Of a stretch of 64,000 bases of DNA, positions 28,395-47,005 are shown one piece after another (positions within the stretch are counted from its first letter, which is position 1; each line of letters starts with the position of its first letter). Source of the DNA: Dyadobacter tibetensis Y620-1 (GTDB lineage: Bacteria; Bacteroidota; Bacteroidia; Cytophagales; Spirosomataceae); contig NZ_AZQN01000003.1 of NCBI RefSeq assembly GCF_000566685.1, positions 434,001 through 498,000 on the forward strand, read 5' to 3'. Position numbers and translations under genes: made by a program. The notes under the pieces are model-generated. The model was not told the DNA's origin and searched no databases. It saw only the letters and a program-made list of their open reading frames with translations.

Positions 28395-28474
28395 ACGTGC
28401 GTTTCGAAATTGGCTTGGCTGATGTTTCAAATGTTAACAATATACACTTCTATGCGTAAATTGCTTTATATTAA

Positions 28475-28496
28475 TGGTCTGTGAAGACACAGACCA
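28475..28496. repeat. REP-like hairpin
   Basis: TGGTCTGTG-AAGA-CACAGACCA is a perfect 9-bp stem with a 4-nt loop at the end of RHS module 11, close to the tyrosine transposase remnant. The motif GACCACGG next to it recurs in the inverted repeat at 29661-29772. Confidence 0.55.
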
Positions 28497-28550
28497 CGGT
28501 CTGGAGACGCCTTTCTCCATGCCTTTGCGGGTAATGGAAGTAACGATCCC

Positions 28551-28573
28551 GCGTGCCCGGGGTCGCGCACGAC
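28551..28573. repeat. GC-rich micro-insertion, site 2, module 11
   Basis: On the plus strand, GCCCGGGGTCGCGCACGAC replaces six core bases between the codons for FE/FD and GNVTS. The same replacement occurs in modules 8 and 5, while module 1 (46553-46570) keeps the uninterrupted FDVRGNVTS sequence. Confidence 0.8.
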
Positions 28574-28831
28574 TCGAAAATTTGAGATTCTCCGTAATAA
28601 TCCACAGGATCGATACCGCCTGCTCCAGGGTAATTGTAATATCTTGAAGTGGTAAGCCGGTCCAGGCAATCATAGGTAAACCCGTAGTTATAAGCCGCTC
28701 TGCCTTTCACCTGCCAGGTCATCTGGCCAATGTTTCCGCTGTTCTGGGAAGTTGCACCGACTGCCGTGGTGTTGGTATTATATCTGAGTTCCTGCCGGAA
28801 AAAGATGATCATTTGTAGCGGAAAAGGTGGG

Positions 28832-29491
28832 TTATTGCTTTACGATTTTCTTAGTTATCAAAGATCCATCCGCAATTAAAATCTTGACCAGATAAACACC
28901 AACGGATAAATTGCTCATCTCAATCCCTTCTGTTGGTATATTGTCAGCACTGTAAACCACTTTACCCGCATTGTTGATTAACTGTATTTTCCCGGTGCTA
29001 GCACCCTTTATTTTCAGCAGGTCTTTAACCGGGTTGGGATAAAAAGTAATCGCATTGGCTTCCGTTTGAAAACCAAAATCCAGGCTTTGGATGCGACTGT
29101 ATGCAAATGTACCATCCTTATCGATCATTTTAAGCCGGTACAGGTTTTCTCCGGGCCGCGTTCGGTCATCCAAAGGCACTTTGTCTACAAATACATACCT
29201 AGAAGCTTTATCCCCATTTGCCGCAACACTTCCAAGAACCATCCACTTCTTACCGTCCTGGCTTCTCTCCACTTCGAAACGGTCAGAATTAATTTCAGAG
29301 GATGTCTGCCAATTCAACAATGCTGTTGTGCCTTCTTTGTTAGCAGTAAAACTTATTAATGTGACAGGGAGGGGAGGTGAAGAATATAATCTTTTGATCC
29401 GATTTCCGGATGTATCATATGAATATATTGTTTGCGCCGATGCTAATCGGGAAACAAACAAAAACAATATTAGTACGCATAATTTTTGCAT
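28832..29491 (-). CDS. Small secreted protein with one YD motif and a T9SS sorting tail
   Basis: The ATG at 29491 starts a signal peptide (MQKLCVLILFLFVSRLASA-Q); 220 residues. The mature N-terminus holds a single RHS/YD-like unit (IYSYDTSGNRIKRLY). A fibronectin-like domain follows with LPVTLISFTANKEG and LNWQTSSEINSDRFEVERS. The end is a type A sorting domain (ITFYPNPVKDLLKIKG ... GVYLVKILIADG, final KKIVKQ). It is therefore probably exported by T9SS. It sits inside the RHS island, immediately upstream of module 11, and such small YD/T9SS proteins may once have preceded a full RHS gene (inference). Confidence 0.85.
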   Translation of the reverse strand: MQKLCVLILFLFVSRLASAQTIYSYDTSGNRIKRLYSSPPLPVTLISFTANKEGTTALLNWQTSSEINSDRFEVERSQDGKKWMVLGSVAANGDKASRYVFVDKVPLDDRTRPGENLYRLKMIDKDGTFAYSRIQSLDFGFQTEANAITFYPNPVKDLLKIKGASTGKIQLINNAGKVVYSADNIPTEGIEMSNLSVGVYLVKILIADGSLITKKIVKQ

Positions 29492-29660
29492 ATCAGTTTT
29501 TAGTCTATTTAATTTTAATAAAAATGTAGCTCGTGGTGAGTAACTGGGTGATCCACAAATTTTCATCGAGGAACCTTTATTTTCTTATAAAACCAATATA
29601 CATTACTCAAACTATCTTAACTATTTGCGTTTTCCAAAAGGATAGTAATTGGTTTCTCAA

Positions 29661-29772
29661 CCGTGGTCTTTACAGATTTTTCGCATTGTGAAGTTTCCAG
29701 TTTCGATGGTAAAATGAACTCGAAATCAGTTTGCATTCAAACTATGCTTTGGAAATCTGTGGGAGACCACGG
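29661..29772. repeat. Long-range imperfect inverted repeat
   Basis: CCGTGGTCTTTACAGATTT (29661-29679) pairs imperfectly with AAATCTGTGGGAGACCACGG (29753-29772) around about 73 nt. It shares the GACCACGG motif with the hairpin near 28490. The stretch 29567-29810 holds no gene. It could be a REP/BIME-like element or the leftover ends of a small insertion. Confidence 0.5.
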
Positions 29773-29810
29773 AATAGATTCTAATGCTCGTCTTAGCAGT
29801 AAATTAGCTT

Positions 29811-30020
29811 CTACACATCTTCATCCTCAAAAAAATCAGGATGCAGTGGTATAGATTTAAAAATCTTTTCTACAAAATGATTTTTATGAGAAAAGAGTTG
29901 TTGGCTCTCTTTACTTTCAATATTAGGATAAATACTTAATACTAATGCATCTTTTAAAGGAAGATAATTTCCACAAAAACAACACATCACTTCTGAATTA
30001 TTATTCAACTGACCATCCAT
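29811..30020 (-). CDS. Putative immunity protein of module 10
   Basis: This is a 69-residue protein whose ATG lies 20 nt inside the end of the module 10 toxin frame, so the pair is translationally coupled. It begins MDGQLNNNSEVMCCFCGNYL, with a CxxC-type cluster (CCFC), then DALVLSIYP, and ends acidic (FFEDEDV). No family was recognised. The immunity role rests on position and size, matching the other nine pairs. Confidence 0.55.
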   Translation of the reverse strand: MDGQLNNNSEVMCCFCGNYLPLKDALVLSIYPNIESKESQQLFSHKNHFVEKIFKSIPLHPDFFEDEDV

Positions 30021-30816: not shown

Positions 30817-30818
30817 AA

Positions 30819-31145
30819 TTATGCATCTTTTATCCTATATTCTAGTAGCCTTTCAGCGATTTCCAGGTTTGAATATCCTCTATTTTTCAATTCTAAATCA
30901 GATTCAATTAAGTCTATTGCATGATCAACTGGAAAGAGCTGAACATACTGAATATCGCCTTTTTCGAAAACAAGATCGTCGTCAGTTTCCTCTATTTCGA
31001 AAAATTTTATTTCAGATTCGATATCCAGCGAATTTTCCATATAGATTAATAAAGCCTCAGAATCAGTATTTAATCCTTCTTCTCGGTACAAAACTTCTAA
31101 CTTTTTTGGATTAATTAGAAAGTCTATCAAATTAACTAATTTCAT
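30819..31145 (-). CDS. Putative immunity protein of module 9
   Basis: This is a 108-residue, strongly acidic protein (FFEIEETDDDLVFEKGD), as expected for a protein that neutralises a basic nuclease. It starts 13 nt after the WHH-type toxin stop and its own stop is two bases before module 10. No named family was recognised. Confidence 0.6.
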   Translation of the reverse strand: MKLVNLIDFLINPKKLEVLYREEGLNTDSEALLIYMENSLDIESEIKFFEIEETDDDLVFEKGDIQYVQLFPVDHAIDLIESDLELKNRGYSNLEIAERLLEYRIKDA

Positions 31146-31157
31146 AATAATGATATT

Positions 31158-32612
31158 TTATTTGTTCCCCCAAATTGACATACCACCAAGCCCCCCTGGG
31201 TGTAGAATATTCCAAAATGTACTGCCTGTCGAGTGCTGTGCTTTGGGAACAAGCTGCATTACTCCAGACTCAATATTGTGATGCCATACCCAATTCGCAG
31301 GTGAAGTCCCTAGAATATTTCCTGTTGGTGATACAGGAACTGATATACCCAATTCTGTCATTGATTTTGCAAAAGCCGCATCTGAAGACATAGCATTGCT
31401 AAGGGCCGTATTTGCTGCTTTAAAGTGACTATAATATCCCTTTCCTGGATAAAGATTATTTGCTAATCTCATTTCATACGCTACCGAGTAATATGCACTC
31501 TTAGCAACCGATACACCTACTTTCCCCAGTTTTGCAAATTTACCAACCGGCAAAATAGTGGCCAAGTTAAAAGTGGCTTCACCACTAGACATTGCTTCAC
31601 CGTTAACATTGGTGCCTGTAAGATATGCTTTAATAGAATTGACACCAATAGCAAGCGGGTTCAATTCATTCATCGTTGTAAAAGCCAAATGAACAGGTCC
31701 ACCATCTTCTAAAAGTCCCGGTCCTTCTTCTTTACTCTTGCTTTTTTTCTTATCATCGTCCTGGGCTTTCTGTACAAACCGCTCACTCGCAGCCGCGTGT
31801 TGCGCAGCCATCTCAGCCGAAGACGTAAACCCACCATAAGCCGAGCTCTCTCGTCCATCCGGATCAATAAACCGTATTGGATTGTTATTCCCATAAGCAT
31901 AAGGTGACCATCTTCTTGAAAGCTCACTGGCAGGATCCACCTCCCACCAGGATCCAAGTCCTGGATCGAGCCACCTAGCCCCATAATCATAAAAGTTTAG
32001 ATCAAATTCTTCGCTTAACTCCTTACCATTATAGAGATAACGGTACTTTCCTGCCGTAGCATCATTGTACCAGGCGCCGTCAAACGCTTTTCCAAAAGGA
32101 TAGTAGTGAGTTTTGCCAAGGATCTCAGTATGATCAATGGTTCCGCTTCCGTTTTTATCCGAAAACACTACCCTGGTATTGCCCAAGTGATCACGCAGCA
32201 CGTATTCATAACGAAACGTTCCGCCATTATTAAATGCACGTCCTTCTTCATTATACACCGCCTCCACGACATTGTTTTTCAGCTCAATGCCGCCCAAATA
32301 ATCCTGGGTTATAGTTGTGGTTCCTGAGGTTTTAACAGTTTTACGGAGCTTGTTGCCCAATCCGTCATAAAGCAAGTCGATGGTATTATTGGAGCCAAAA
32401 TCAAATTTGTTTGGCAGGTTCAGATAGTTGTGCGGTGCATCCAGATTGATATGACTGGCCGGGATGCTGCTGGCGCCGGTACTTTGTGTGGTAAGGTTTC
32501 CACCGGCTGGTATGGTCAATGCCTGGTTGTCAATGATGGAATTCGTGTATCTGCTGGAGCCTTTCACCATACCATTGCGGGTGATCGAAGTAACGTTTCC
32601 CCGGACATCATA
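31158..32612 (-). CDS. RHS module 9: core with WHH/HNH-type nuclease tip
   Basis: RHS homology begins at about 32612 (YDVRGNVTSI) without a start region; the longest conventional frame starts at 32570. The core is uninterrupted (HLGNTRVVFSDKNGSG, NGKELSEEFDLNFYDYGARW) and lacks both GC-rich insertions. It ends FIDPDGRES plus the YGGFTSSAEMAAQ linker shared with module 10. A pretoxin region follows (LPVGKFAKLGKVG). The tip ends NWVWHHNIESGVMQLVPK and HPGGLGG, which fits the WHH branch of HNH/EndoVII nuclease toxins: His-His metal site, LVP and a following His. DNase activity is inferred. Immunity gene 12 nt downstream. Confidence 0.75.
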   Translation of the reverse strand, partial: YDVRGNVTSITRNGMVKGSSRYTNSIIDNQALTIPAGGNLTTQSTGASSIPASHINLDAPHNYLNLPNKFDFGSNNTIDLLYDGLGNKLRKTVKTSGTTTITQDYLGGIELKNNVVEAVYNEEGRAFNNGGTFRYEYVLRDHLGNTRVVFSDKNGSGTIDHTEILGKTHYYPFGKAFDGAWYNDATAGKYRYLYNGKELSEEFDLNFYDYGARWLDPGLGSWWEVDPASELSRRWSPYAYGNNNPIRFIDPDGRESSAYGGFTSSAEMAAQHAAASERFVQKAQDDDKKKSKSKEEGPGLLEDGGPVHLAFTTMNELNPLAIGVNSIKAYLTGTNVNGEAMSSGEATFNLATILPVGKFAKLGKVGVSVAKSAYYSVAYEMRLANNLYPGKGYYSHFKAANTALSNAMSSDAAFAKSMTELGISVPVSPTGNILGTSPANWVWHHNIESGVMQLVPKAQHSTGSTFWNILHPGGLGGMSIWGNK

Positions 32613-32623
32613 AGCATGCTTTA

Positions 32624-33163
32624 TTACTTACATTCATAAAACCACTTATCATCTACCTTTTGCAACTTACTAAATTTGTCTTTCCAATAAGGCGTTAAGG
32701 TGCTGGAATCTTCTAAGTAATAAACCTTGCACCTTTCATCTAACGTAAATTCTATGAAACGTCCAAGTTTAGGTGTTGATTCTAAATCTATTACCCCCAA
32801 TTCTCTGTATATTTTGTCCAACTTTTTGGCATATTCTTTTGCGTAATTGAATGGCGAATTTTCATTAACCCCTTTGAATTTGAGGAGTTTAATGAAAGTT
32901 TTGTTATAGGTACTACTATCACTTTTATAAAAATTATCAAAACACTCAAAAGCAGGTATTGTTAATGTTTCATTTTCTATTTTAGTATGAGAATAATAAT
33001 AATGAAGTGAATCATTTCTCTCATTTCTTGCTTCAATAGAAACATTTAAAAGAATACCTAAATCTTTATTATTAAACCTTTGAATAAAAGCTAGTGGTTC
33101 TTCTTTTCGGCTACTACAAGAGCCAAGAAAAGAAATTAATATTATTGCTATAAAATTTTTCAT
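32624..33163 (-). CDS. Putative immunity lipoprotein of module 8
   Basis: This is a 179-residue lipoprotein with the signal FIAIILISFLGSC (lipobox LGSC, Cys about residue 16). Its ATG overlaps the toxin stop (ATGA), so the two are coupled. The rest is polar, without a recognised family. The membrane-anchored location would suit interception of an incoming toxin in the periplasm. Confidence 0.6.
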   Translation of the reverse strand: MKNFIAIILISFLGSCSSRKEEPLAFIQRFNNKDLGILLNVSIEARNERNDSLHYYYSHTKIENETLTIPAFECFDNFYKSDSSTYNKTFIKLLKFKGVNENSPFNYAKEYAKKLDKIYRELGVIDLESTPKLGRFIEFTLDERCKVYYLEDSSTLTPYWKDKFSKLQKVDDKWFYECK

Positions 33164-34059
33164 CTGTGCAACCCTCTTGGTTTTCTAATCCAATAATTAT
33201 AACCGTTTCTTATTGCTCTTTGGTCGCCTGGTGAATCTAAAACGTGGTATGGCTTGCCAGGATTATCAGACCGGCTATTAAAAGCATTATTAATATGCGA
33301 TGCTGCTCTCAAAGTGCGGTATGAAAAACCTAATTGCTTTCCACCTTGCCCCCAAAGGAAATTACCATAATCAGGGTTATTATATGCAACACCATCGACA
33401 ACATTTAGACTATTGTAATTTCTTTGAGTAATGTTTTGATAATCCATTTTGCCACTACTTTTGCCATCAGATAATACCCCTTCAAAACCGATTGGTCGGC
33501 TTTCCCTTTCAATATATGACCATGCATTATCCCTGTTGCCTTGTTCCATTACCCCACTTTCAACCATAGCACTATTAATTTCATCGTTACCAACAAATCT
33601 TAATTCTAATTTCCCTGTTTTTATACCCGCCATGTCATCGGCATAATCATTAAAACCAAAACTTTGTCCACCTGTGAAAGTTTCTTTTCCATCTTTACCA
33701 GTCGTGCTTTTTTGATTGAAACCTGTAATTTCCGTTTTGCCATTGTCCATAATTCCCACATACATCCCATTTTTGAATAATATTAAGCTATCCCCATTTA
33801 TATCTATATATTTCAATGGGTTTCCGCCGGCAAACGAATAAGGAGATAGAGAGTAATATTTCTCTGAAAATCTGTCAACCTCCCACCAGCTCACCATTCC
33901 CGGATCCAACCATCTCGCTCCATAATCGTAGAAGTTCAGATCAAATTCTTCACTGAGCTCCTTACCATTATAAAGATACTTATACTTAGAAGCCGTTGCA
34001 TCATTATACCATGCACCATCAAAAGATTTCCCAAAAGGATAATAATGTGTTTCGCCCAA
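33160..34059 (-). CDS. RHS module 8: tip of the toxin-44-like kind
   Basis: The translatable part (299 residues) starts inside the core (GETHYYPFGKSFDGAWYNDA) after the GC-rich insertion at 34108 breaks the upstream frame. The core end differs from the other modules: LDPGMVSWWEVDRFSEKYYS, then SPYSFAGGNPLKYIDINGDS. The tip carries YGNFLWGQGGKQLGFSYRT and a closing SPGDQRAIRNGYNYW. These resemble the 'polymorphic toxin type 44' pattern (GN..WG, then D..DQ.AI..GY). Catalytic residues are not established. It overlaps its lipoprotein immunity gene by 4 nt. Confidence 0.65.
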   Translation of the reverse strand: MGETHYYPFGKSFDGAWYNDATASKYKYLYNGKELSEEFDLNFYDYGARWLDPGMVSWWEVDRFSEKYYSLSPYSFAGGNPLKYIDINGDSLILFKNGMYVGIMDNGKTEITGFNQKSTTGKDGKETFTGGQSFGFNDYADDMAGIKTGKLELRFVGNDEINSAMVESGVMEQGNRDNAWSYIERESRPIGFEGVLSDGKSSGKMDYQNITQRNYNSLNVVDGVAYNNPDYGNFLWGQGGKQLGFSYRTLRAASHINNAFNSRSDNPGKPYHVLDSPGDQRAIRNGYNYWIRKPRGLHR

Positions 34060-34107: not shown

Positions 34108-34129
34108 CAGTGGAGCGCCACCCCGGCCG
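34108..34129. repeat. GC-rich micro-insertion, site 1, module 8
   Basis: Plus strand GTGGAGCGCCACCCCGGCC sits where intact modules (1, 9, 6) have six bases within the HLGNTR-VFSDKN codons. Net gain 16 nt. Identical in modules 5 and 3. It contains GTGG-AGCG-CCAC and the palindrome CCCGGCCGGG. Confidence 0.85.
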
Positions 34130-34556: not shown

Positions 34557-34578
34557 CACGCCCGGGGTCGCGCACGAC
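34557..34578. repeat. GC-rich micro-insertion, site 2, module 8
   Basis: Plus strand GCCCGGGGTCGCGCACGAC replaces the six bases CGAACG seen at this place in module 1. Net gain 16 nt. The reverse complement of the site-1 insert (GGCCGGGGTGGCGCTCCAC) aligns to it. Confidence 0.85.
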
Positions 34579-35138: not shown

Positions 35139-35648
35139 TTAATGACCTACTTTACCATCAGGGGGTAGAAATTTCAATGTGTCCGGTATTAAATGATCAG
35201 GATAATAATTGAACGGTTCCCCTCCATAATTTTTAAGGGCATAAATTCCATTTTTCTCAATAATGGTTGAAATTTCCGTAGAACAACCATCGGGACGCTT
35301 TTCCATTATTGCAGTTTTTAATGTATCTGTATATATAATGTACTGTTCAGCGCCCGTATAAACTTTGAATTCAATCCCATTTATATTGGTTGTCATAACA
35401 GGGGTCGGTCTTGGAGTATATTTGACCATATAGCCTCCGACCCTCACAGTAAACCTTGTACTGTCGGGAGAAATACGATCTATAAAAATCTCGTTTTCAC
35501 ATTGTTTATAGTCCCCTTCGTTACATATTTCTGTAAGTATTTTAATTAAATTTTTATCAAGGGTCACTCCAATAGCTTCTTTGGAAGCTCGTTTCTGACA
35601 ACAAACTAAAAGTGTCATTGTTAGAAATAATACAAATTTCGACATCAT
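35139..35648 (-). CDS. Putative immunity lipoprotein of module 7
   Basis: This is a 169-residue lipoprotein: signal MMSKFVLFLTMTLLVCC with a cysteine at about residue 16-17. It is a clear paralogue of the module 6 immunity protein; both share IFIDRI/LFIDRI..PDST.FTVRV.GYM, YTGAE and the identical end FLPPDGKVGH. Its ATG overlaps the toxin stop (ATGA). The paralogous immunity proteins go with paralogous toxin tips, which supports the pairing. Confidence 0.7.
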   Translation of the reverse strand: MMSKFVLFLTMTLLVCCQKRASKEAIGVTLDKNLIKILTEICNEGDYKQCENEIFIDRISPDSTRFTVRVGGYMVKYTPRPTPVMTTNINGIEFKVYTGAEQYIIYTDTLKTAIMEKRPDGCSTEISTIIEKNGIYALKNYGGEPFNYYPDHLIPDTLKFLPPDGKVGH

Positions 35649-36583
35649 TTCCTCGAGTTTGGTGCTACATATTTGAATTGTTGCCCGTAATAGCGTAGGT
35701 TAATCCTTTGGCCTTTTAAAACCTCCGAGACACGTATATTTTGAAAATCTGCTCTAATAAACATAGAATATCTTAAAGACCCGGTAGCCCTATCAGCAGT
35801 AATTCCACGCAAATAATTATCATGTCCAAAAACAAAGTTCATCTTACCTGGAATATTCCTTCCACCGAAGCTTGCATCGGAACCGCCGCCAAGATTTAAA
35901 TAACTTGGGCTTGCTTCACCTCCCTTATCCGGGTGCGTGTGAACCATGGCCACTAGTTCTTTGGTTTTTCCATCCACAGCATCAACCAAATTTCCGCCTT
36001 CAAATTTATACCCATACCTTCCCGGATCAGCGGTAGTGCTGTTGTTATCATAACTTGGCAAAACCAGGACGCCATTTTTAAGTATAGCCGCCGCTTCTTC
36101 GTGTGTTCCTCCGGCTGTTGAATTGCTCGCTATCCGGTTATAAGCATCGGTTTGGTTACTATACATGATACTGCCGTCTTTTCTGTAATTGACAGTTCCA
36201 TTGTCTGTTTTATCGTTGTAAGTTCTACCAACATACGACTGACCTTCTCCTACATCCTTTTTGCTTTTGATTTTTGGGTCATACTGCATCGTACCGTCTG
36301 TGGTCTTGTACCAATCCATTCCATTGGGATCAATATTCACAATCGGGTTATTTCCCGCATATACATACGGGGAATCGTGATAATATTTCTCGCTCAACGG
36401 ATCCACCCCCATGAACCGACCAACCGTCGGATCGTAAAACCTTGCTTGCAGATCAATATACCCGGAGGCAACCTGCGTTTCCTTCCCAAGGAAGTTGTAT
36501 CGGTTAACGGCATTACGTGTCGCAGGCGTCTGAATAGGACTGTTCCTATCTATCTCCAACCCAAAGGGGTAATAATTTAAATA
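35645..36583 (-). CDS. RHS module 7: different core type, JAB/DUF4329-like tip
   Basis: Core homology opens at about 36583 (NYYPFGLEIDRNSPIQ) without a start. Its core (NRYNFLGKETQVASGYIDL, ARFYDPTVGRFMGVDPLSE) is a second RHS subtype, unlike the YNGKELSEEFDLNFYDYG core of every other module. From EKYYHDSPYVYAGNNP onward it matches module 6 almost throughout. The tip has VAMVHTHPDKGG, the HxH...D-like metal-binding pattern of JAB/MPN (DUF4329-type) domains, at about residue 200. Peptidase activity is inferred. Coupled to a lipoprotein immunity gene. Confidence 0.75.
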   Translation of the reverse strand, partial: YLNYYPFGLEIDRNSPIQTPATRNAVNRYNFLGKETQVASGYIDLQARFYDPTVGRFMGVDPLSEKYYHDSPYVYAGNNPIVNIDPNGMDWYKTTDGTMQYDPKIKSKKDVGEGQSYVGRTYNDKTDNGTVNYRKDGSIMYSNQTDAYNRIASNSTAGGTHEEAAAILKNGVLVLPSYDNNSTTADPGRYGYKFEGGNLVDAVDGKTKELVAMVHTHPDKGGEASPSYLNLGGGSDASFGGRNIPGKMNFVFGHDNYLRGITADRATGSLRYSMFIRADFQNIRVSEVLKGQRINLRYYGQQFKYVAPNSRK

Positions 36584-36821: not shown

Positions 36822-37325
36822 TCAATGACCTACTTTACCATCAGGGGGTAAAAATTTCGGATTTTTCACTATCAAAGAATCTGGGAAATACACATAAGGC
36901 TCATTGCCATGTTTATCAATAACATAATTCCCGTTTTTTTCAAAGATAGTCCATATAGATTCGACACATTTATTTTCTCTTTCAATGTAACTTTTAAATG
37001 TTGAATCAGGCTTCAGATATTTTTCAGCTCCAGTATACACATAGAAGATATTTCCATTGATGTTGAAGGTGAAAAATGGGGGTGGTTCAGCTCTATATTC
37101 AGACATGTACCCTCTAACCCGGACGGTAAATATTGTACTGTCAGGGTTTATCCGGTCAATAAATAATTCTTTTAAGCAGTTTTGACAATTTTCAATTTCA
37201 CAGAATTCAGCTAAAATCTTAGATATTTTTGGGTTGGCATCTAAATTAATCGGCGATTTGTGATTTTGTGTTTCACCACATCCTAATATTAGGAGGCATA
37301 AAACTATTGGCACAAGGTATTTCAT
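36822..37325 (-). CDS. Putative immunity lipoprotein of module 6
   Basis: This is a 167-residue lipoprotein with signal MKYLVPIVLCLLILGC (lipobox LILGC). It is paralogous to the module 7 immunity protein (FIDRINPDSTIFTVRVRGYM; same FLPPDGKVGH end). It starts right after the stop of the module 6 toxin. An N-terminal CENCQNC-like cysteine pair is present in the mature part. Confidence 0.7.
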   Translation of the reverse strand: MKYLVPIVLCLLILGCGETQNHKSPINLDANPKISKILAEFCEIENCQNCLKELFIDRINPDSTIFTVRVRGYMSEYRAEPPPFFTFNINGNIFYVYTGAEKYLKPDSTFKSYIERENKCVESIWTIFEKNGNYVIDKHGNEPYVYFPDSLIVKNPKFLPPDGKVGH

Positions 37326-38328: not shown

Positions 38329-38501
38329 ATGATCTCTAAAACATATTTATACCGATATGTGCCGCCATTATTAAATGCCCGGCCCTCCTCGTTATATACC
38401 GCTTCAACGGCTCTTGTCATTGATTTTTCTATAAAGGGAGTTATATATTCATTAAACAGATTTTCTAATTCTCTTATAGTAAAATTACCTTTATAATTCA
38501 T
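38157..38501 (-). pseudogene. Truncated immunity-like gene fused to RHS module 6 core
   Basis: An ATG at 38501, overlapping the end of immunity gene 5 by 11 nt, opens MNYKGNFTIRELENLFNEY and ITPFIEKSMTR. The frame then runs straight into RHS core (AVEAVYNEEGRAFNNGG) and goes out of frame near 38335. The first about 30 residues look like the N-terminus of a second small immunity-type protein cut off by the arrival of module 6. Confidence 0.55.
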
Positions 38502-38724
38502 CCTCCTTTGGAGGCCTAACAAGACTTTTGAATTTTTGGTCTATAACTCCAAATTTGTTGAAGTTTTCCTGACTTATTCTTAGAGATATTAAATTAGGGC
38601 CGCCGTCATCATCGATATATTTCTCCTGAAAGATATCCTTTTGCCAGAAGCAAACAGGACATATGTCGGAAATACCTTCGATGGAGTGATAACCACAGCA
38701 TATACATTGTTTTTTACTTTCCAT
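38491..38724 (-). CDS. CPCC-family cysteine-rich putative immunity protein of module 5
   Basis: This is a 77-residue protein with CICCGYHSI, CPVCFWQKD and GGPNLISLRISQENF, then VRPPKEDEL. This matches the cysteine-rich CPCC family, whose members are frequent immunity proteins beside polymorphic toxins. The two Cys pairs could bind zinc. It overlaps the end of the module 5 toxin frame by 11 nt. The gene is intact although its toxin is frameshifted. Confidence 0.75.
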   Translation of the reverse strand: MESKKQCICCGYHSIEGISDICPVCFWQKDIFQEKYIDDDGGPNLISLRISQENFNKFGVIDQKFKSLVRPPKEDEL

Positions 38725-39679
38725 ATTTAGCTACCTGTTCTGCCCAGTACGCGGCTGGATCTTTTAATCTTCTATAAAATGTCTCTACCACTCCGTTGGG
38801 ACGCATAATTCCAAATTCTCCCGTTTGCATATTCATCCGAAAAGTATAACCAGCATTATTGGTAAAATCTTCAATTTTACCGCCAATAGGCCCTTCTAGC
38901 AAAGATAATGCTCTTTTGTAATACGCTCCTTTGTTATTCCACCCCATTCAATTGCATGTTTACCAAAATGATATTCAAATCTTGAAAATCTGCTAAAAGC
39001 TACGGGTAACATTTTCGCTGGTGCACTTATTTGACCAAATCCAGGAAACATCCCAAATTGAGCCATCATTTTCTCAAACCGTAATGCTCTTGGCTCTAGT
39101 CCCCATCTATGATTTCTTCTAGGAACCTCATTGGTTTGTTCTCCATTCTTTTTTTTTATCAGAATTTTCCTTTTGGGTATCACCGTCTTTTTTGTTTGTA
39201 TCAATAGAAATAGATCCCGCAATATCACTATCATCAATAACAACATTATTTCCATTTAAATCCTGAATGGTGCGTTGATTTAAACTCCCCATCTCTGTGG
39301 CACTACCTGTCCCAGCACCAGTAACCCCGTAACCATTGCTTCCGGTCAATTCAAAAGCACTCATTCCATCCGGATCAATAAACCTAACTGGGTTATTATT
39401 TCCATAAACATAAGGGCTCCATCTTCTATTTACCTCACTGGCTGGATCGACCTCCCACCAGCTACCAAGACCCGGATCCAGCCACCGCGCTCCGTAATCA
39501 TAAAAATTTAGATCAATCTCCTCGCTTAACTCCTTCCCGTTATAAAGATACTTATACTTGGAAGCCGTTGCATCATTATACCACGCACCATCAAAGGCCT
39601 TTCCAAAAGGATAGTAGTGAGTTTCGCCAAGGATCTCAGTATGATCAATACTGCCGCTTCCGTTTTTATCCGTAAATAC

Positions 39680-39701
39680 CAGTGGAGCGCCACCCCGGCC
39701 G
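39680..39701. repeat. GC-rich micro-insertion, site 1, module 5
   Basis: Same 22-base sequence as in modules 8 and 3 (plus strand GTGGAGCGCCACCCCGGCC within it), at the same codon position of the core. Confidence 0.85.
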
Positions 39702-40129
39702 GGTATTGCCCAAATGATCACGCAGGGCATATTCATACCGGAAGGTCCCGCCATTGTTAAAAGCCCGGCCCTCCTCGTTATATACCGCTTCTACGGTGTT
39801 GTTTTTTAGTTCTATGCCATCTAGATAGTCCTGGGTTAAAGTCGTTGTTCCAGCCGTTTTAACGGTTTTACGAAGTATATTGCCCAGTCCGTCATACAAG
39901 AGTTCAATGGTATTGCCGGTTCCGAAGTCAAACTTGGTGGGCAGGTTCAGATAATTGTGCGGCGTATTCAGATTGATATGACTGGCCGGGATGCTGCTGG
40001 CGCCGGTACTTTGCGTGGTAAGGTTTCCACCGGCTGGTATGGTCAATGCCTGGTTGTCAATGATGGAATTCGTGTATCTGCTGGAGCCTTTCGCCATACC
40101 ATTGCGGGTGATCGAAGTAACGTTTCCCC

Positions 40130-40150
40130 ACGCCCGGGGTCGCGCACGAC
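40130..40150. repeat. GC-rich micro-insertion, site 2, module 5
   Basis: Plus strand GCCCGGGGTCGCGCACGAC, at the same position as in modules 8 and 11. Confidence 0.85.
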
Positions 40151-40363
40151 TCGAAATTCAGAGATTCTCCGTAATAATCCACCGGATCGATACCGCCTGC
40201 TGCGGTATAATTTGAATATCTTGAAGTGGTAAGCCGGTCCAGATAATCATAGGTAAATCCGTAAGCCTGGGCAGCCCTGCCCTTTACCTGCCAGATTATC
40301 TGACCGATATTGCCGCTGTTATTGAATTAGATACCCAAAGATGGTACATACGTTTTAAATTGA

Positions 40364-40475: not shown

Positions 40476-40949
40476 TTATTCTGCTAATTTAAGTATATCT
40501 AACTTTTGCACTTCGTTATAGGAAGTTTCTACTTCTCGCTTATTACCCACATGGTATTCCATAAATTTCAAAAGTTCGTCAGTCTTTACGTTCTTAATTA
40601 CAGACCCAACAGTACCGCCGTAAGCAAAAACAACGCTTGTATCTTTTACATTTCTCAATACTGGATAATAGGGCAGCAGATTTTTCTTATTGATTTCTTC
40701 GTAATAAAACATCGGCATCTTGCTCCAACCATCATTGGAAGGCAACTGTGTTTTCAAAACTCCATTTGGAGGGATTTTATAGAGCCGTTTACCTCCTTCA
40801 TATTGGGCGGGTACTCCTGACGGCTGATTGAATATAATAAGTACGTTGCCCTTAAATCCCTTAGGAACAATAATAATTTCTTCATCGGCAGAATAGCAGC
40901 CAAAAAAGAATAGGCTGAGAGAAATTAAAAAGAAGTATGAATTTTTCAT
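40476..40949 (-). CDS. Putative immunity lipoprotein of module 4
   Basis: This is a 157-residue lipoprotein, signal FFLISLSLFFFGC (lipobox FFGC, Cys about residue 18). The mature part starts with an acidic stretch, then IIVPKGFKGNVLIIFNQPSG and KRLYKIPPNGVLKTQ. This IVP.gf.G pattern occurs in small Bacteroidota lipoproteins (DUF6843-like). The start overlaps the toxin stop (ATGA). The immunity role is by position. Confidence 0.6.
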   Translation of the reverse strand: MKNSYFFLISLSLFFFGCYSADEEIIIVPKGFKGNVLIIFNQPSGVPAQYEGGKRLYKIPPNGVLKTQLPSNDGWSKMPMFYYEEINKKNLLPYYPVLRNVKDTSVVFAYGGTVGSVIKNVKTDELLKFMEYHVGNKREVETSYNEVQKLDILKLAE

Positions 40950-41917
40950 TTGTTAAAGCCCTCCTGCACTTTTTTGTTCCAGTCTGATACCGAATAGTTT
41001 ATGTCACCCTGTCTTACTCCGGTAAAGTTACCTTTGCTATCAAAATTGACTTGCATATTCACATTAAACAAAGGCTGTTTGTTATCTCCCACCAAATCTT
41101 TGAGTCCACCTTGTTCCATCTGGGCACCTAAAAACAGTTTCCCTTTGCCCGATTGATCCGTAATAAACGCTTCTGTACTTGGGAATTGGTCACCAGTGAA
41201 AGAACCCGTTATGTTCAATGTGCCTTTTTTCATATCCACATTGAACGAAAGACCGGCATGTACATCTAAGGCTGGTGTTAGAGGTTGAAAAGTAATCGGG
41301 TCTTTACCCGAGTGGCTAAAATCAAAGGACGCCGTATTATTTGAGAATGCAATATTTTCGTTTTTCCCCTTTGGTGAGCCTCTATGGACTATGGGTGAAA
41401 TATAGGTAGCCCCAACCATAGCACCATAGAAAATAGTTTCGTTACTTCTTGAAACAGGCTGGGTTACAACTTTATTGGTAGGATCAACAGTAAAGTTTGA
41501 ATAAACCCTTGAAGTACCCGTAAAAGAAGCACCTCTCCCATCACCATAGAAAAAACCACCCCCAGCAGATGATGCCGAAATAAAAGACCGAACATTGACT
41601 GACCACGGCCACATCCCATCCGGGTCAATAAACCGCATGGGGTTATTAAACGCATAATTGTATGGAGACCACCGCCTTCCCTGTTCGCTCAACGGATCCA
41701 CCTCCCACCAACTCCCCATACCTGGATCCAGCCACCTCGCGCCATAATCATAAAAATTTAGATCAAATTCTTCGCTTAACTCTTTACCGTTATAAAGATA
41801 ACGATACTTCCCAGCCGTTGCATCATTATACCATGCTCCATCAAAAGATTTCCCAAAAGGATAATAATGCGTTTCGCTTAAAATCTCGGTGTTGTCAATA
41901 ACGCCGCTATAAGTAGT
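40946..41917 (-). CDS. RHS module 4: core with unrecognised tip
   Basis: Core homology begins at about 41917 (TYSGVIDNTEILSETHYYP), soon after the stop of immunity gene 3, and has no start codon of its own. The core ends FNNPMRFIDPDGMWPWSVN. The tip is Gly/Ser/Asn-rich with beta character: IVHRGSPKGKNENIAFSNN, LDVHAGLSFNVDMKKGTLN, GDQFPSTEAFITDQSGKG. I recognise no catalytic motif. The strand-rich build would suit a binding or pore-type effector as well as an enzyme. Coupled to a lipoprotein immunity gene. Confidence 0.6.
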   Translation of the reverse strand, partial: TTYSGVIDNTEILSETHYYPFGKSFDGAWYNDATAGKYRYLYNGKELSEEFDLNFYDYGARWLDPGMGSWWEVDPLSEQGRRWSPYNYAFNNPMRFIDPDGMWPWSVNVRSFISASSAGGGFFYGDGRGASFTGTSRVYSNFTVDPTNKVVTQPVSRSNETIFYGAMVGATYISPIVHRGSPKGKNENIAFSNNTASFDFSHSGKDPITFQPLTPALDVHAGLSFNVDMKKGTLNITGSFTGDQFPSTEAFITDQSGKGKLFLGAQMEQGGLKDLVGDNKQPLFNVNMQVNFDSKGNFTGVRQGDINYSVSDWNKKVQEGFNK

Positions 41918-41926: not shown

Positions 41927-42178
41927 TCATTCTTTAACTGAGTATGATTCTAAGAAATATGAATAGTTACCAAAGTCAAAAGCAAAGGAAGGTATATACT
42001 TATTAATCAAATTGGATTGTTCTAAATTGATTTCGTATGGGTCATACATCAAAGGATCATCTTCTTTTGGAGAAAATATAGATATTATCTCTTCAAAAGG
42101 GATATCATCTACGTTGAAATCTTCATGGAAACTGTCATCCATATTGTTGTAGGAAGTAATAACTCTTTCTATTTTCAT
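41927..42178 (-). CDS. Putative immunity protein of module 3
   Basis: This is an 83-residue very acidic protein (MDDSFHEDFNVDDIPFEE; FSPKEDDPLMYDP). It has the size and charge of the colicin E3 immunity protein (84 residues, acidic). It starts 11 nt after the stop of the E3-like toxin. Homology to that immunity family is not evident by eye, so the pairing rests on position and charge. Confidence 0.65.
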   Translation of the reverse strand: MKIERVITSYNNMDDSFHEDFNVDDIPFEEIISIFSPKEDDPLMYDPYEINLEQSNLINKYIPSFAFDFGNYSYFLESYSVKE

Positions 42179-42189: not shown

Positions 42190-43227
42190 TTAATTTGGTG
42201 TTGTTCTGCCTGGAACTTTTGGTTTAATTGTCTCTCCTGAATTTGGATCGGCAACTCGCTTATGTTTTCCTCGCTTATCATAAACCTCTATTTCACCATG
42301 TTGAGAATCCCATTCCAAAATATCTCCATCCGGTGTAACCCATCTTGCTCTTCCAGCTTTTGGTATAACTTTTCTTGCTCCTGGAAATCCAGGTAAAACA
42401 GTTGGTGGGGATTCATAGTATCTTATTTCTGGGTTTACACCCGGAGCCTGAGCCTGTGTCGGGGTCAAGACAAAAGCTAATGTCATCAAAGGTATTGTGG
42501 CGGCCACTTTAAGGCTATTTAAGCTTATTTGAGGAATATTTTCGGTAAAAGCCCCCAAACTATACCACCAAGGCAGACCTATTGTTGTTGCTTGGCTTTC
42601 TCGCTTTCCGTAAACGGTTGCCCCTTTGCCATCTCCATTAACCACAATACCAGTTTTGTTGTCATAGGTAAACAGTGCATCTGAATCCCGATAAATATCA
42701 TAAGTTTTATTTTTTGGACAAGTTTCACATTTTGCTATAACGTCATTTCTGTTCAAAATATCTCTTTCCGTGGAATTGTCAGTCTCAGCACCAGTAACCC
42801 CGTAACCATTGCTTCCGGTCAATTCAAAAGCACTCATTCCATCTGGATCAATAAACCTTACCGGATTATTATTCCCATAAGCATAAGGGCTCCATCTTCT
42901 ATTTCCTTCACTGGCCGGATCAACTTCCCACCATGATCCTATCCCCGGATCCAGCCACCTAGCTCCGTAATCATAAAAATTTAGATCAAATTCCTCGCTT
43001 AACTCTTTACCATTATAAAGATAACGATACTTTGAAGCATTTGAGTCACCATACCAGGCACCGTCAAACGCTTTTCCAAAGGGGTAATAGTGGGTTTCGC
43101 TTATTATCTCAGAATTGTCAATACTACCCGAATTGTTTTTATCCGAAAACACCAGTGGAGCGCCACCCCGGCCGGGTATTGCCCAAATGATCACGCAGGG
43201 CATATTCATACCGGAAGGTCCCGCCAT
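42190..43227 (-). CDS. RHS module 3: colicin E3-like rRNase tip
   Basis: The usable frame starts after the site-1 insertion and runs through the common core to FIDPDGMSAFELTGSNGYG, the linker shared with module 5. A hydrophobic stretch (SLKVAATIPLMTLAFVLTP) precedes the tip. The last 75 residues carry GRARWVTPDGDILEWDSQHG, EIEVYDKRGKHKRVADPNSG and PKVPGRTTP. This matches the cytotoxic domain of colicin E3 (EWDSQHG..E.Y..RGKH.G..DP.TG), which cuts 16S rRNA in the decoding centre; the catalytic Asp, His and Glu positions are present. This is the most secure tip assignment in the array. Confidence 0.85.
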   Translation of the reverse strand: MAGPSGMNMPCVIIWAIPGRGGAPLVFSDKNNSGSIDNSEIISETHYYPFGKAFDGAWYGDSNASKYRYLYNGKELSEEFDLNFYDYGARWLDPGIGSWWEVDPASEGNRRWSPYAYGNNNPVRFIDPDGMSAFELTGSNGYGVTGAETDNSTERDILNRNDVIAKCETCPKNKTYDIYRDSDALFTYDNKTGIVVNGDGKGATVYGKRESQATTIGLPWWYSLGAFTENIPQISLNSLKVAATIPLMTLAFVLTPTQAQAPGVNPEIRYYESPPTVLPGFPGARKVIPKAGRARWVTPDGDILEWDSQHGEIEVYDKRGKHKRVADPNSGETIKPKVPGRTTPN

Positions 43228-43497: not shown

Positions 43498-43513
43498 TAC
43501 TAAACGATAGGAA

Positions 43514-43843
43514 TTAATATTTTTCTAATTTGCCTATCAATACATATTTACTATTGTCTTCCATAAATTTTTCAGTCTTATGCTCGAAATCTGTCAGTAA
43601 GAATAATGCACCTCCAACAATACATTCATAGCCATTTTCTATAAATAGCTGTTCTTCATACCTTGGTACCAGAATTAATATGTCTCCTTTTAAGTCTCCG
43701 AAGCTTATCAAATGGTCTGACTTAAAAATTAATTTTGATGGAGAAAATACTTTAAAAATTTCTCCTACTATTAGATTTGTTCCAGCTGGCCCATCAAAAT
43801 TCCAGGGTTCGCTTACCACTATTTTATACTTTGCTTTTTCCAT
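43514..43843 (-). CDS. Putative immunity protein of module 2
   Basis: This is a 109-residue soluble protein (KYKIVVSEPWNFDGPAGTN, FKVFSPSKLIFKSDHLISF). No signal peptide or known family. It starts 5 nt after the module 2 toxin stop; module 3 begins 16 nt after its own stop. Confidence 0.6.
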   Translation of the reverse strand: MEKAKYKIVVSEPWNFDGPAGTNLIVGEIFKVFSPSKLIFKSDHLISFGDLKGDILILVPRYEEQLFIENGYECIVGGALFLLTDFEHKTEKFMEDNSKYVLIGKLEKY

Positions 43844-43848
43844 GAAAT

Positions 43849-44768: not shown

Positions 44769-44813
44769 ACAGTATCTCAAAGAACGATTGACAAAAGGCA
44801 CTATTTGCCTCAC

Positions 44814-45062
44814 CTACGTGATACTATTATCAAAGTAAATAAATTTTTCTCCTAATGTGTAAGGCAATTCTAGACTATCAATAATTGTTCTTGTTAATGT
44901 CCCCTTACTTTCAATACGGTTTTCATAATTATATTTTTCAAGTATTTCTTTCAACTTTTTTAATTGGGGCTCTAAACTTTCTAATTGATCTGTTTTTGAC
45001 AAACATAGATCAATAAACTGTTTTAGTTTTTCCTTTTTATTAAGAAATGAAGTTTCAGTCAT
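44814..45062 (-). CDS. Putative immunity protein of module 1
   Basis: This is an 82-residue protein from ATG 45062 (MTETSFLNKKEKLKQFIDL), highly charged and helical (LKKLKEILEKYNYENRIES), ending LGEKFIYFDNSIT. It starts 5 nt after the toxin stop. No family was recognised. Confidence 0.6.
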   Translation of the reverse strand: MTETSFLNKKEKLKQFIDLCLSKTDQLESLEPQLKKLKEILEKYNYENRIESKGTLTRTIIDSLELPYTLGEKFIYFDNSIT

Positions 45063-45067
45063 TATTT

Positions 45068-46723
45068 TTATTTTATTAAGTTTCCTAAATTGGGTACGTA
45101 CATTTGGTAGCTTCCTCCTGTATAAATACCTCCCTGAGACGCAGCCCTGCCATATATATAGGTTGAGCCGGGAGCAATTTGAAATTGTGAAATACCCGAC
45201 ATAGTGTTCCATTTGGCAGGCAATGCTAAACCAACTCTATTGGTATAACTTGTAAATGTAGGAAATAAATACCTTCCACTTTCACTTGCTGCACCACCAT
45301 AAAATCGAAGACCAAATGTATTCATATTTGCAATTCTTAATGAAATGGTTTCTGTCTCAAAACTCTGTAATATCTCCTTTCTATAAGATCTTGGAATGCC
45401 TATTTCTTGCAAATAATTCGAAGCTTGTTTAACTCCACTATATAAATTTTGTGAACCGCTACCTAGACTTTTTCCTCTAACCAATGCTACTACATATTTA
45501 CCCGCCGCAGCAAGCGCCGTCTCAGTCGCAATTGTTTGCAATCCTATGATTATCCCAATAGTCCCCGCCTGTTCATGTGGCAGAAGCCGGGAGTCCGCAT
45601 TGGACAGTGTACCTTGATCTCTTTGGGGCAAGGTTACTCCACCAGTGGCTAGCTGCGGTGTTACTGAACTAGCCCGCCCTGTTGCATCCGCTTTTGCAAT
45701 CGTTTGTGGACAATTAGGTGGGCAGCCCCCATTATCACTCGATGCAGCATAATCATTATCTCCAACAGTTTGTGCTTTGCCGTCAAAGTCATAAATTGTT
45801 TGGGAAGCCATCCCATCAGGATCAATGAACCTGATGGGATTGTTTTCTGCAAAATTATAGGGAGTCAGACTTGGAAATTGGTCTGCCAGCGGATCCACCT
45901 CCCACCAGCTCCCCATCCCCGGATCCAACCACCTAGCCCCATAATCATAAAAGTTCAGATCAAATTCCTCGCTTAACTCCTTCCCGTTATAAAGATAACG
46001 ATACTTTGAAGCATTTGAGTCACTATACCAGGCACCGTCAAAACTTTTCCCGAAGGGATAGTAATGTGTTTCGCTTAAAATCTCGGTGTTATCAATACTA
46101 CCACTTCCATTTTTATCAGAAAACACTACCCGAGTATTGCCCAAGTGATCACGCAGCACGTATTCATAACGAAACGTTCCGCCATTATTAAATGCACGTC
46201 CTTCTTCATTATACACCGCCTCCACGACATTGTTTTTCAGCTCAATGCCGCCCAAATAATCCTGGGTTATAGTTGTGGTTCCTGAGGTTTTAACAGTTTT
46301 ACGGAGCTTGTTGCCCAATCCGTCATAAAGCAAGTCGATGGTATTATTGGAGCCAAAATCAAATTTGTTTGGCAGGTTCAGATAGTTGTGCGGTGCATCC
46401 AGATTGATATGACTGGCCGGGATGCTGCTGGCGCCGGTACTTTGTGTGGTAAGGTTTCCACCGGCTGGTATGGTCAATGCCTGGTTGTCAATGGTGGTAT
46501 TTGTGTATCTGCTGGAGCCTTTCACCATACCATTGCGGGTGATGGAAGTAACGTTCCCCCGAACGTCAAAATTCATAGACTCTCCATAGTAATCCACAGG
46601 ATCGATACCGCCTGCTGCGGTGTAATTAGAATATCTTGAAGTGGTGAGCCGGTCCAAGTAATCATAGGTGAAGCCGTATGCCTGGGCAGCCCTGCCTGGA
46701 CGCTGAACCCGAAACCCGCCCAA
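45068..46723 (-). CDS. RHS module 1: core and toxin tip at the promoter end of the array
   Basis: This is the most complete uninterrupted core (GRAAQAYGFTYDYLDRLTTS, FDVRGNVTSITRNGMVKG, HLGNTRVVFSDKNGSGS, YNGKELSEEFDLNFYDYG) without either insertion. The shared MASQTIYDFDGKA linker and the NCPQTIAKADA segment lead to a unique tip: VKQASNYLQEIGIPRSYRKE, LRFYGGAASESGRYLFP, RVGLALPAKWNTMSGISQF, then SQGGIYTGGSYQMYV. The Arg/GG..SGRY, LALP.W and GG..Q elements recall ADP-ribosyl or NAD-glycohydrolase toxin folds; not certain. The N-terminal region in another frame overlaps its start (46690-47005), so as it stands the product lacks a proper beginning. Confidence 0.7.
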   Translation of the reverse strand: MGGFRVQRPGRAAQAYGFTYDYLDRLTTSRYSNYTAAGGIDPVDYYGESMNFDVRGNVTSITRNGMVKGSSRYTNTTIDNQALTIPAGGNLTTQSTGASSIPASHINLDAPHNYLNLPNKFDFGSNNTIDLLYDGLGNKLRKTVKTSGTTTITQDYLGGIELKNNVVEAVYNEEGRAFNNGGTFRYEYVLRDHLGNTRVVFSDKNGSGSIDNTEILSETHYYPFGKSFDGAWYSDSNASKYRYLYNGKELSEEFDLNFYDYGARWLDPGMGSWWEVDPLADQFPSLTPYNFAENNPIRFIDPDGMASQTIYDFDGKAQTVGDNDYAASSDNGGCPPNCPQTIAKADATGRASSVTPQLATGGVTLPQRDQGTLSNADSRLLPHEQAGTIGIIIGLQTIATETALAAAGKYVVALVRGKSLGSGSQNLYSGVKQASNYLQEIGIPRSYRKEILQSFETETISLRIANMNTFGLRFYGGAASESGRYLFPTFTSYTNRVGLALPAKWNTMSGISQFQIAPGSTYIYGRAASQGGIYTGGSYQMYVPNLGNLIK

Positions 46724-47005
46724 CTGGCCAGTTCTCCCACTTTAAGCCCACTTGCATGATAGGACAAAGAAACGGGAAGGCTTATCGGGCCATCCGTTAC
46801 CGTGTAAATGGGAATGTTCACACTGGGTACACCGGTATAATAACTGACGGGGATATCTCCAAATTTTCCAAGGCTGGATGCTGTGGGCCCTGGCATTACG
46901 ACATCTTTTATGGCATTATTATTATTGACTGGCTGGGCAATCAGTTTGGTATCGAAAGTAACCAGTAGCAGATATGCACTATAACCCTTCTGGAAGACTC
47001 ATCAT
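46690..47005 (-). pseudogene. Broken N-terminus of the parental RHS gene
   Basis: ATG-ATG at 47005-47000 gives MMSLPEG and then a stop. One base out of frame, the sequence continues YSAYLLLVTFDTKLIAQPV (signal-peptide-like), NNNNAIKDVVMPGPTASS, LGKFGDIPVSYYTGVPSVN and GWAGFGFSVQAG-type residues, the standard beginning of long Bacteroidota RHS proteins. Near 46690 it jumps, out of frame, to the late core segment GRAAQAYGF. So there is a frameshift in the signal peptide and a large internal deletion of RHS repeats. It marks the 5' end and probable promoter side of the array. Confidence 0.8.

What the first reader, a model, noticed from the sequence alone, without database searches (positions are those of the whole stretch)
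28450..47005. Array of eleven displaced RHS modules with ten toxin/immunity pairs
All modules are on the minus strand, each is a 3' piece of one RHS core of varying length joined to a distinct or divergent tip, and each of the ten tips is followed within 0-13 nt (or overlapped) by a small gene. Three pairs share an ATGA overlap (modules 8, 7 and 4). No module has a signal peptide and complete core. Orphan Rhs tips are known in Enterobacteria; an archive of ten in one T9SS-bearing Bacteroidota locus, with lipoprotein immunities for at least four, is unusual. I infer a store of cassettes that can recombine through the shared core with an expressed RHS gene elsewhere in the genome.
Basis: partly seen in the sequence, partly recalled or inferred. 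Interest (0 to 1): 0.86.

Follow-up and report, generated by a model that had tools for sequence, protein, structure and literature searches.

The report
Headless RHS toxin-immunity island with hairpin insertions
A 19-kb stretch of a Dyadobacter genome holds ten pairs of predicted toxin ends and immunity genes, likely left over from RHS weapon genes, while the genome assembly holds no intact RHS gene, so the stretch would serve as a store of immunities rather than a weapon; six 17-letter hairpin insertions break the carrier part of four of its modules.

Summary
Ten RHS core-end/tip modules on the minus strand are each followed by a small gene; an eleventh core fragment has no tip. The tip of module 5 is broken.

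The proposed partner gene is absent: all ten Rhs_assc_core matches of this assembly lie in the array. The array's own head keeps about 95 N-terminal residues, lacks the original start and has lost about 1,480 codons.

Two congeners (one is D. jejuensis) have the intact homologue, open frames of 2,105 and 2,139 codons, with displaced core ends behind it. In 45 of 47 congeners where it could be measured, the island's site is a gap of at most 2.2 kb; here a 132-bp direct repeat brackets the island. It is best read as a relocated, headless set of C-terminally displaced modules. Nine of ten tips and all ten small genes are open; relatives of four tips end long RHS frames in other Dyadobacter.

Orphan arrays of this size are known (eleven cdi pairs in E. 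coli). Unexpected is a 17-nt hairpin, a net 16-nt insertion, whose six copies break cores of modules 3, 5, 8 and 11. It recurs in displaced RHS copies and in surplus copies beside intact tRNA-Arg and 5S genes.

The parts
27831..27962 (+). left copy of the 132-bp direct repeat that brackets the island (locus sequence plus half of a dispersed repeat)
   Evidence: 123 of 132 identical to 47138-47269
47138..47269 (+). right copy of the 132-bp direct repeat
   Evidence: 47124-47178 matches the island-free site of D. jejuensis
28107..28289 (-). piece of a broken REP-associated tyrosine transposase remnant (whole remnant about 27960-28430)
   Evidence: NF047646, E 8.4e-5, below the curated cut-off; no Pfam match; stops in frame
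28573..28830 (-). module 11: core fragment without tip, hairpin insertion at its end
   Evidence: core residues 18-103
28557..28573 (+). 17-nt hairpin insertion, site 1, module 11
28832..29566 (-). T9SS type A sorting-domain protein at the array's 3' end
   Evidence: TIGR04183 E 4.5e-12; 73% identical homologue at the same end of the D. jejuensis array
29811..30020 (-). immunity 10 (predicted)
   Evidence: overlaps tip by 20 nt; homologue 73.5% next to an M10-like tip in L121
30001..30816 (-). module 10: core end plus tip
   Evidence: TIGR03696 4.9e-15; tip relatives in L121, L134-L137
30819..31145 (-). immunity 9 (predicted)
   Evidence: 12 nt after tip
31158..32570 (-). module 9: core plus HNH/colicin-DNase-like tip
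   Evidence: PF12639 1.9e-7, PF14414 5.8e-7
32624..33163 (-). immunity 8 (predicted), lipoprotein-like
   Evidence: ATGA overlap
33160..34059 (-). module 8: core end plus Ntox44 tip (core piece spans 33793-34886)
   Evidence: PF15607 2.1e-8; core residues 1-354 in three frames
34110..34126 (-). 17-nt hairpin insertion, site 2, module 8
34562..34578 (+). 17-nt hairpin insertion, site 1, module 8
35139..35648 (-). immunity 7 (predicted), lipoprotein-like
   Evidence: ATGA overlap
35645..36559 (-). module 7: divergent core end plus JAB-like tip
   Evidence: TIGR03696 9.1e-16; PF14464 only 0.067, below cut-off; 91.8% DNA identity to M6 over 511 bp
36822..37325 (-). immunity 6 (predicted), lipoprotein-like
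   Evidence: 1 nt after tip
37327..38328 (-). module 6: core end plus JAB-like tip; core frame broken upstream
38491..38724 (-). immunity 5 (predicted; Cys_rich_CPCC)
   Evidence: PF14206 4.7e-23
38714..39754 (-). module 5 tip region, split over three frames
39362..40362 (-). module 5 core, three frames
39682..39698 (-). 17-nt hairpin insertion, site 2, module 5
40134..40150 (+). 17-nt hairpin insertion, site 1, module 5
40476..40949 (-). immunity 4 (predicted), lipoprotein-like, DUF6843
   Evidence: PF20862 3e-13; ATGA overlap
40946..41719 (-). module 4: core end plus tip of unknown class
   Evidence: 34% relative directly behind the core of a long RHS frame in L128/G006
41927..42178 (-). immunity 3 (predicted), DUF7683
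   Evidence: PF24731 3.2e-18
42190..43227 (-). module 3: core plus Cytotoxic tip (core piece 42835-43498)
   Evidence: PF09000 2.9e-16; 60-70% relatives directly behind long RHS frames
43155..43171 (-). 17-nt hairpin insertion, site 2, module 3
43514..43843 (-). immunity 2 (predicted)
   Evidence: 68% homologue next to an M2-like tip in L160
43849..44601 (-). module 2: core end plus tip (core piece 44512-44778)
   Evidence: 62.6% tip relative in L160
44814..45062 (-). immunity 1 (predicted)
   Evidence: 5 nt after tip
45068..46723 (-). module 1: core plus tip, joined out of frame to the N-terminal remnant of the head gene
   Evidence: TIGR03696 1.5e-13
46690..46980 (-). N-terminal remnant of the RHS head gene, original start codon missing
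   Evidence: 76% identical to residues 11-105 of the full-length RHS frame of G004

Best explanation
The island is an apparently relocated array of ten RHS tip/predicted-immunity pairs that most likely arose by successive C-terminal displacement of an RHS gene whose own head is broken, so that it would act mainly as a repertoire of immunities (and unlaunched toxin ends), not as a working weapon. How it would work: an incoming RHS 3' end recombines in the shared core and pushes the previous core-end/tip/immunity segment downstream; repeating this leaves a train of modules (inferred from anatomy and relatives). The train was then moved as one island into a site between an adhesin-like gene and a PorG-like gene (inferred from island-free sites in congeners and the flanking direct repeat). 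The head gene lacks its original start and about 1,480 core codons that relatives have (shown). Nine of ten tip frames and ten of ten immunity frames are open (shown), more than a simple neutral-decay model expects (modelled). The likely reason is that the immunity proteins protect against relatives that still launch related tips (inferred).
For: Ten core-end/tip/small-gene modules with varying core start points. Full-length open frames of 2,105 and 2,139 codons with the same core in two congeners, with displaced core ends behind them. No full-length gene here; residues 106-1542 of it have no match in the genome. The gap between the flanking genes is 198-2157 bp in the 45 of 47 congeners where it could be measured, against 19,818 bp here. 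Direct repeat 123 of 132. Homologous array with the same T9SS gene and a core fragment at its 3' end, but at another chromosomal place, in D. jejuensis. Relatives of the M2, M3, M4 and M10 tips directly behind long RHS frames of other Dyadobacter. One tip on two core ends, M6/M7. Neutral decay scaled to the repeat divergence would leave 0.1-5.7 of nine tips and 1.3-7.9 of ten small genes open, depending on assumed rates; nine and ten are.
Against: The decay model assumes that the direct repeat arose when the island landed, and it leaves out the broken M5 tip. At the mildest setting P is only 0.017 for tips and 0.09 for small genes. Tips are about as intact as immunities, which a pure immunity store does not predict. 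There are no expression data. Low dN/dS between modules (0.02-0.42) may reflect selection before displacement. The genome is a draft of 33 contigs.
Confidence: 0.68

Rival explanations
1. Cassette store for an expressed RHS gene of the same genome: modules recombine through the shared core onto a working head gene.
For: Shared core and linkers; one tip on two core ends. Full-length heads with the same core exist in two congeners.
Against: No head gene in this assembly. Six cores are interrupted: hairpin frameshifts in M3, M5, M8, M11, another frameshift in M6, and the deletion join in M1.
Confidence: 0.1
2. A decaying remnant without function: the island lost its head and is drifting to extinction.
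For: Broken head, broken M5 tip, interrupted cores, degenerate transposase remnant beside it. A second, smaller remnant on contig C8.
Against: Nine of ten tips and all ten small genes are open despite 6.8% divergence of the flanking repeat.
Confidence: 0.18
3. The orphan tips are translated inside the cell from internal starts and act with their immunities as toxin-antitoxin pairs.
For: A Salmonella orphan rhs is reported to act as a type II toxin-antitoxin module (PMC7043789, title and start of abstract seen in the listing). Open frames begin at internal start codons (mechanical).
Against: No expression evidence; four small genes look like lipoproteins, which suits toxins that arrive from outside (N-terminal sequences).
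Confidence: 0.04
4. Misassembly of several RHS loci into one array.
For: Draft assembly of 33 contigs, repeated core.
Against: Core copies differ by dS 0.4 up to saturation; the array lies inside a 1.24-Mb contig; D. jejuensis has an array with the same end.
Confidence: 0.02

Closest known systems
Orphan cdiA-CT/cdiI and rhs-CT/rhsI arrays (PMC3150448, passages seen)
   Same: Tip/immunity pairs, mostly without start signals, behind a carrier gene; [quoted passage not shown] coli EC869; orphan tips match tips of full-length genes of other strains.
   Different: There the arrays follow the cdi or rhs genes; here the head is broken and no intact carrier with this core was found in the assembly.
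Rhs C-terminal displacement arrays of bee gut bacteria, with Apibacter (PMC8125069, passages seen)
   Same: [quoted passage not shown] Apibacter is also a Bacteroidota and most of its rhs genes sit next to T9SS type A sorting-domain genes, as here.
   Different: There arrays are described downstream of an intact gene; here the array has no intact head and sits at a locus with only a short gap in the congeners measured.
Orphan immunity arrays of Vibrio cholerae T6SS clusters (PMC5361080, abstract and section list seen)
   Same: Sequential displacement; retention explained by protection against kin.
   Different: There effectors are lost and immunities kept; here nine of ten tips are still open.
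Tox-JAB-1 with Imm65 (PMC3482391, passages seen)
   Same: Bacteroidetes RHS tip with HxH motif and a lipobox immunity, like M6/M7 with I6/I7.
   Different: Membership not tested with their profiles; Pfam JAB scores are below cut-off.
REP palindromes, GTAG- and CGTC-tagged (PMC3733652, passages seen)
   Same: Short hairpins, sometimes inside coding regions; a weak RAYT remnant lies beside the island.
   Different: The 17-nt hairpin has no GTAG or CGTC at either end, and its pattern has seven exact matches in this genome, six of them in the array.

Membership tests
RHS C-terminal displacement (orphan tip) array | several core-3'-end/tip segments in tandem on one strand | tested here: met
RHS C-terminal displacement (orphan tip) array | each tip followed by its own small gene | tested here: met
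   ten of ten, spacing -20 to 12 nt
RHS C-terminal displacement (orphan tip) array | array lies behind an intact full-length gene with the same core | tested here: not met
   head is a remnant of about 95 residues; no intact gene in the assembly. Met in G004 and D. jejuensis. Hence filed as a variant
RHS C-terminal displacement (orphan tip) array | orphan tips occur as tips of full-length genes elsewhere | tested here: met
   relatives of 4 of 10 tips directly behind long RHS frames: M3 60-70%, M2 62.6% (971-codon frame on a short contig), M10 41-47% over part of the tip, M4 34%. M8, M9 and M6 relatives only in displaced or unclear places; none for M1 beyond its linker, M5 end, M7
RHS C-terminal displacement (orphan tip) array | tips are toxic and the small genes neutralise them | not testable with these tools
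   toxin-family profiles hit 3 of 10 tips above cut-off: M3, M8, M9
T9SS-linked RHS locus (as in Apibacter) | type A sorting-domain gene adjacent | tested here: met
   28832-29566, TIGR04183
REP family (for the 17-nt hairpin) | GTAG or CGTC tag at one end | tested here: not met
   12 distinct forms read, none has either tag at an end of the 17 nt
REP family (for the 17-nt hairpin) | high copy number, mainly between genes | tested here: not met
   seven exact pattern matches in this genome, six in the array

The most novel reading that the evidence does not exclude
A 17-nt hairpin, adding a net 16 nt, is a minimal mobile or enzyme-written mark of this bacterial family that lands in the surplus copies of duplicated genes (displaced RHS modules, second copies of tRNA-Arg genes, a second 5S rRNA) and spares the working copy, in effect a duplicate-silencing system.
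Probability: 0.15. Interest if true: 0.88.

Novelty: new variant of a known kind. Interest (0 to 1): 0.56.

Why it matters
A headless, relocated tip/immunity array lets one ask directly whether such arrays are kept for immunity alone, because no launcher with this core was found in the genome. The hairpin insertions matter separately: the same short stem-loop, with compensatory changes in its stem, recurs at like sites in surplus gene copies of several genera of one bacterial family. That would be either an unusually small mobile element or a process that marks duplicates.

Tried and rejected
Rejected: a full-length RHS with this core elsewhere in the assembly; misassembly; the hairpin as an ordinary genome-wide REP; the island as a known RNA family (no match at gathering score). 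PF05593 was a poor probe, with no match in this genome. PDB sequence searches found nothing for the M10 and M2 tips. A head-versus-displaced test for the hairpin (0 of 7 long-frame copies, 10 of 29 displaced copies, in four genomes, counted) points the expected way but is not significant (Fisher P 0.15); many displaced copies are too short to contain the sites, and one G013 hairpin lies near a copy not in that table. On first writing I had put the M8 tip relative (L143) at the end of a long RHS frame; it lies 1,540 bp behind the core, in a displaced place, and this is corrected. Not used: structure prediction, the large protein search, viral scans. Whether the hairpin is bypassed in translation or removed from RNA was considered and not tested.
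Full report
What is there. The window is part of a 5.31-Mb, 33-contig genome. The genome may be D. tibetensis Y620-1: 5.31 Mb and 43.45% GC are printed for it (PMC6680632, passages) and the window is 43.46% GC. This name is an inference. On the minus strand between 28573 and 46980 lie a broken RHS N-terminus, ten modules made of a core end, a tip and a small gene, a T9SS sorting-domain gene and a tip-less core fragment. Tip classes by profile: Cytotoxic (M3), Ntox44 (M8) and HNH/colicin-DNase (M9) above cut-off, JAB-like (M6, M7) below cut-off; the other tips had no informative match. Of the ten small genes one matches DUF7683 (I3), one DUF6843 (I4) and one Cys_rich_CPCC (I5) above cut-off.

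The head is gone. All ten Rhs_assc_core matches of the genome are in the array. A search with the first 1,542 residues of the full-length frame of G004 found only residues 11-105, at 46690-46980. Module 1 resumes about 1,480 codons later in another frame. None of the 34 codons between the preceding stop and the first ATG of this remnant is a start codon. So the array cannot reload a head in this genome unless the assembly has lost one.

The array moved. The genes on both sides are separated (match edge to match edge) by 198-2157 bp in 45 other Dyadobacter genomes and by 19,818 bp here. In the other two of 47 the genes lie on different contigs and no gap could be read. A 132-bp direct repeat brackets 27963-47137. 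It consists of locus sequence, partly present at the island-free site of D. jejuensis, plus half of a dispersed repeat with four weaker copies elsewhere in the genome. A REP-associated transposase remnant lies at the 3' end; its match is weak, E 8.4e-5 and below the cut-off, and Pfam shows none. D. jejuensis carries an array with the same 3' end (T9SS gene 73% identical, then a core fragment) at another chromosomal place, in which none of these tips was found at E up to 1e-4.

Tips are exchanged. M6 and M7 carry nearly the same tip (91.8% over 511 bp) on two different core ends. M1/M2, M3/M5 and M9/M10 share a linker but not a tip. Among the fetched loci of relatives, tip relatives stand 1 to 91 bp behind the core of long RHS frames for M3 (60-70%, L131, L123, L121), M2 (62.6%, L160, with its neighbour gene at 68%; that frame is 971 codons on a short contig), M10 (41-47% over part of the tip, L134-L137) and M4 (34%, L128). 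In displaced places, about 1.5 kb behind a core, stand an M10 relative (52.5%, with I10 at 73.5%, L121) and an M8 relative (36%, L143). M9 has displaced relatives in G004 (L072). M6 has one weak match (32%). M1 matches only in its linker part; M7 and the M5 end have none.

Are they kept? Core copies show dN/dS 0.02-0.42 between modules where it could be computed, but this can date from before displacement. Scaling neutral decay to the 6.8% divergence of the flanking repeat, the model expects 5.7 down to 0.1 of nine tips, and 7.9 down to 1.3 of ten small genes, to stay open, depending on rate and indel share. Nine and ten are open; the broken M5 tip was left out of the model. At the mildest setting the probabilities are 0.017 and 0.09. 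This favours retention but rests on the assumption that the repeat arose at insertion.

The hairpin in RHS. Modules 5, 8 and 11 carry one 17-nt form at a YD-motif Asp codon, and modules 3, 5 and 8 another form at NTR|LVF. Where aligned to a clean copy it adds a net 16 nt and shifts the frame. M5 and M8 differ by dS 0.82 in the core, yet both insertions are identical in them. Neutral inheritance would leave 17 of 17 identical with a probability of about 8e-6 per site, so the insertions are younger than the split of the copies, were homogenised, or are themselves constrained. In D. jejuensis the nine exact 16-nt sites lie inside, or within about 330 bp upstream of, displaced RHS core copies. G013 has two at what reads as the same NxR|LVF site. 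None occurs in 72 other RHS records fetched, four of which are contained in others.

The hairpin outside RHS. Degenerate copies beside an intact tRNA-Arg(CCT) gene (CCG in two genomes) carry it, as does a degenerate 5S copy beside an intact 5S. In the 17 RNA records examined, 16 distinct places because L085 and L112 are the same, the intact gene never carried it. The fit of the flanks to the intact gene is weak in L118, one-sided in L086 and L088, and partial for some sites of L079 and L111.

How far this reaches. Over all distinct contexts in the fetched DNA, 67 of 68 keep both variable stem pairs complementary. On all 12 distinct forms the covariation score and the paired share exceed 500 of 500 shuffles, while the counts of pairs and pair types are reached by 41 and 29 of 500 (an earlier run with 10 forms). 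The search patterns fix much of the sequence, so this speaks for the variable pairs only. A scan of 390 genomes of the order found the pattern in 33, 32 of them in this genome's own family, against seven hits for the reversed pattern. The family is Spirosomaceae by recall.

Most of those places were not read. Twenty were fetched: five (L101, L115, L117, L119, L120) show neither a tRNA gene nor an RNA-like flank by eye, and L102 and L107 have tRNA-like flanks but no intact tRNA within the 3 kb held. Four more D. jejuensis matches lie beside a tRNA-Met gene and were not analysed. The match of this genome at C9:233140 lies in a stretch without a recognised RNA gene. These weaken the duplicate-only reading. 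No description of such an element was found in the paper searches (listings read; passages of PMC3733652); that library lacks most subscription journals.

Verdict. The array is a real, headless and apparently relocated variant of a known kind: orphan RHS tip/immunity arrays made by C-terminal displacement. Eleven orphan pairs are in print for the cdi locus of E. coli EC869 (PMC3150448, passages), and long rhs arrays are described for bee gut bacteria (PMC8125069, passages). The hairpin insertions are the part that is not explained.

Noticed in passing
L082, L081, L079, L084, L085, L088, L103-L106, L111, L113, L116: Degenerate extra copies near an intact tRNA-Arg, often in tandem, carrying one or two 17-nt hairpins; in the L082 copy they sit in the anticodon loop and the T loop (net 16 nt each).
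   Followed up: partly
L083 2607-2800: Degenerate second 5S rRNA directly behind an intact 5S gene (2495-2606), with the same hairpin, followed by short GC-rich tandem repeats.
   Followed up: partly
L161 1609-2374 (D. jejuensis C1:832109-832874): Four 17-nt hairpin matches in a row next to a tRNA-Met gene (2492-2566).
   Followed up: no
L035 4725-6818 (G000 contig C8): Second remnant in the same genome: a RHS core piece and a decayed homologue of the T9SS gene, apparently the relic of another array.
   Followed up: partly
window 47179-47334 and 27881-27962; L038-L041: Dispersed repeat of about 150 bp with inverted ends (TTTGACCTTGTCACGAC ... GTCGTGACAAAG), MITE-like; the left copy is only half of it.
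   Followed up: partly
L072 14023-15021 and L073 6257-7279: A gene that reads as related stands directly before both full-length RHS genes; the L072 one matches peptidase M43 (PF05572). Its presence in the window's genome was not tested.
   Followed up: no
window about 34990-35080 and 40370-40450: A shared stretch of some tens of bases, seen only in the translations, follows immunities 7 and 4 before the next core piece; possibly part of the exchanged cassette.
   Followed up: no
L086 about 2966-3010; L080 about 2597-2640: Fourteen-base GC-rich tandem repeats run into the hairpin, in G013 near a tRNA-His gene and in the window's own genome on contig C9.
   Followed up: no
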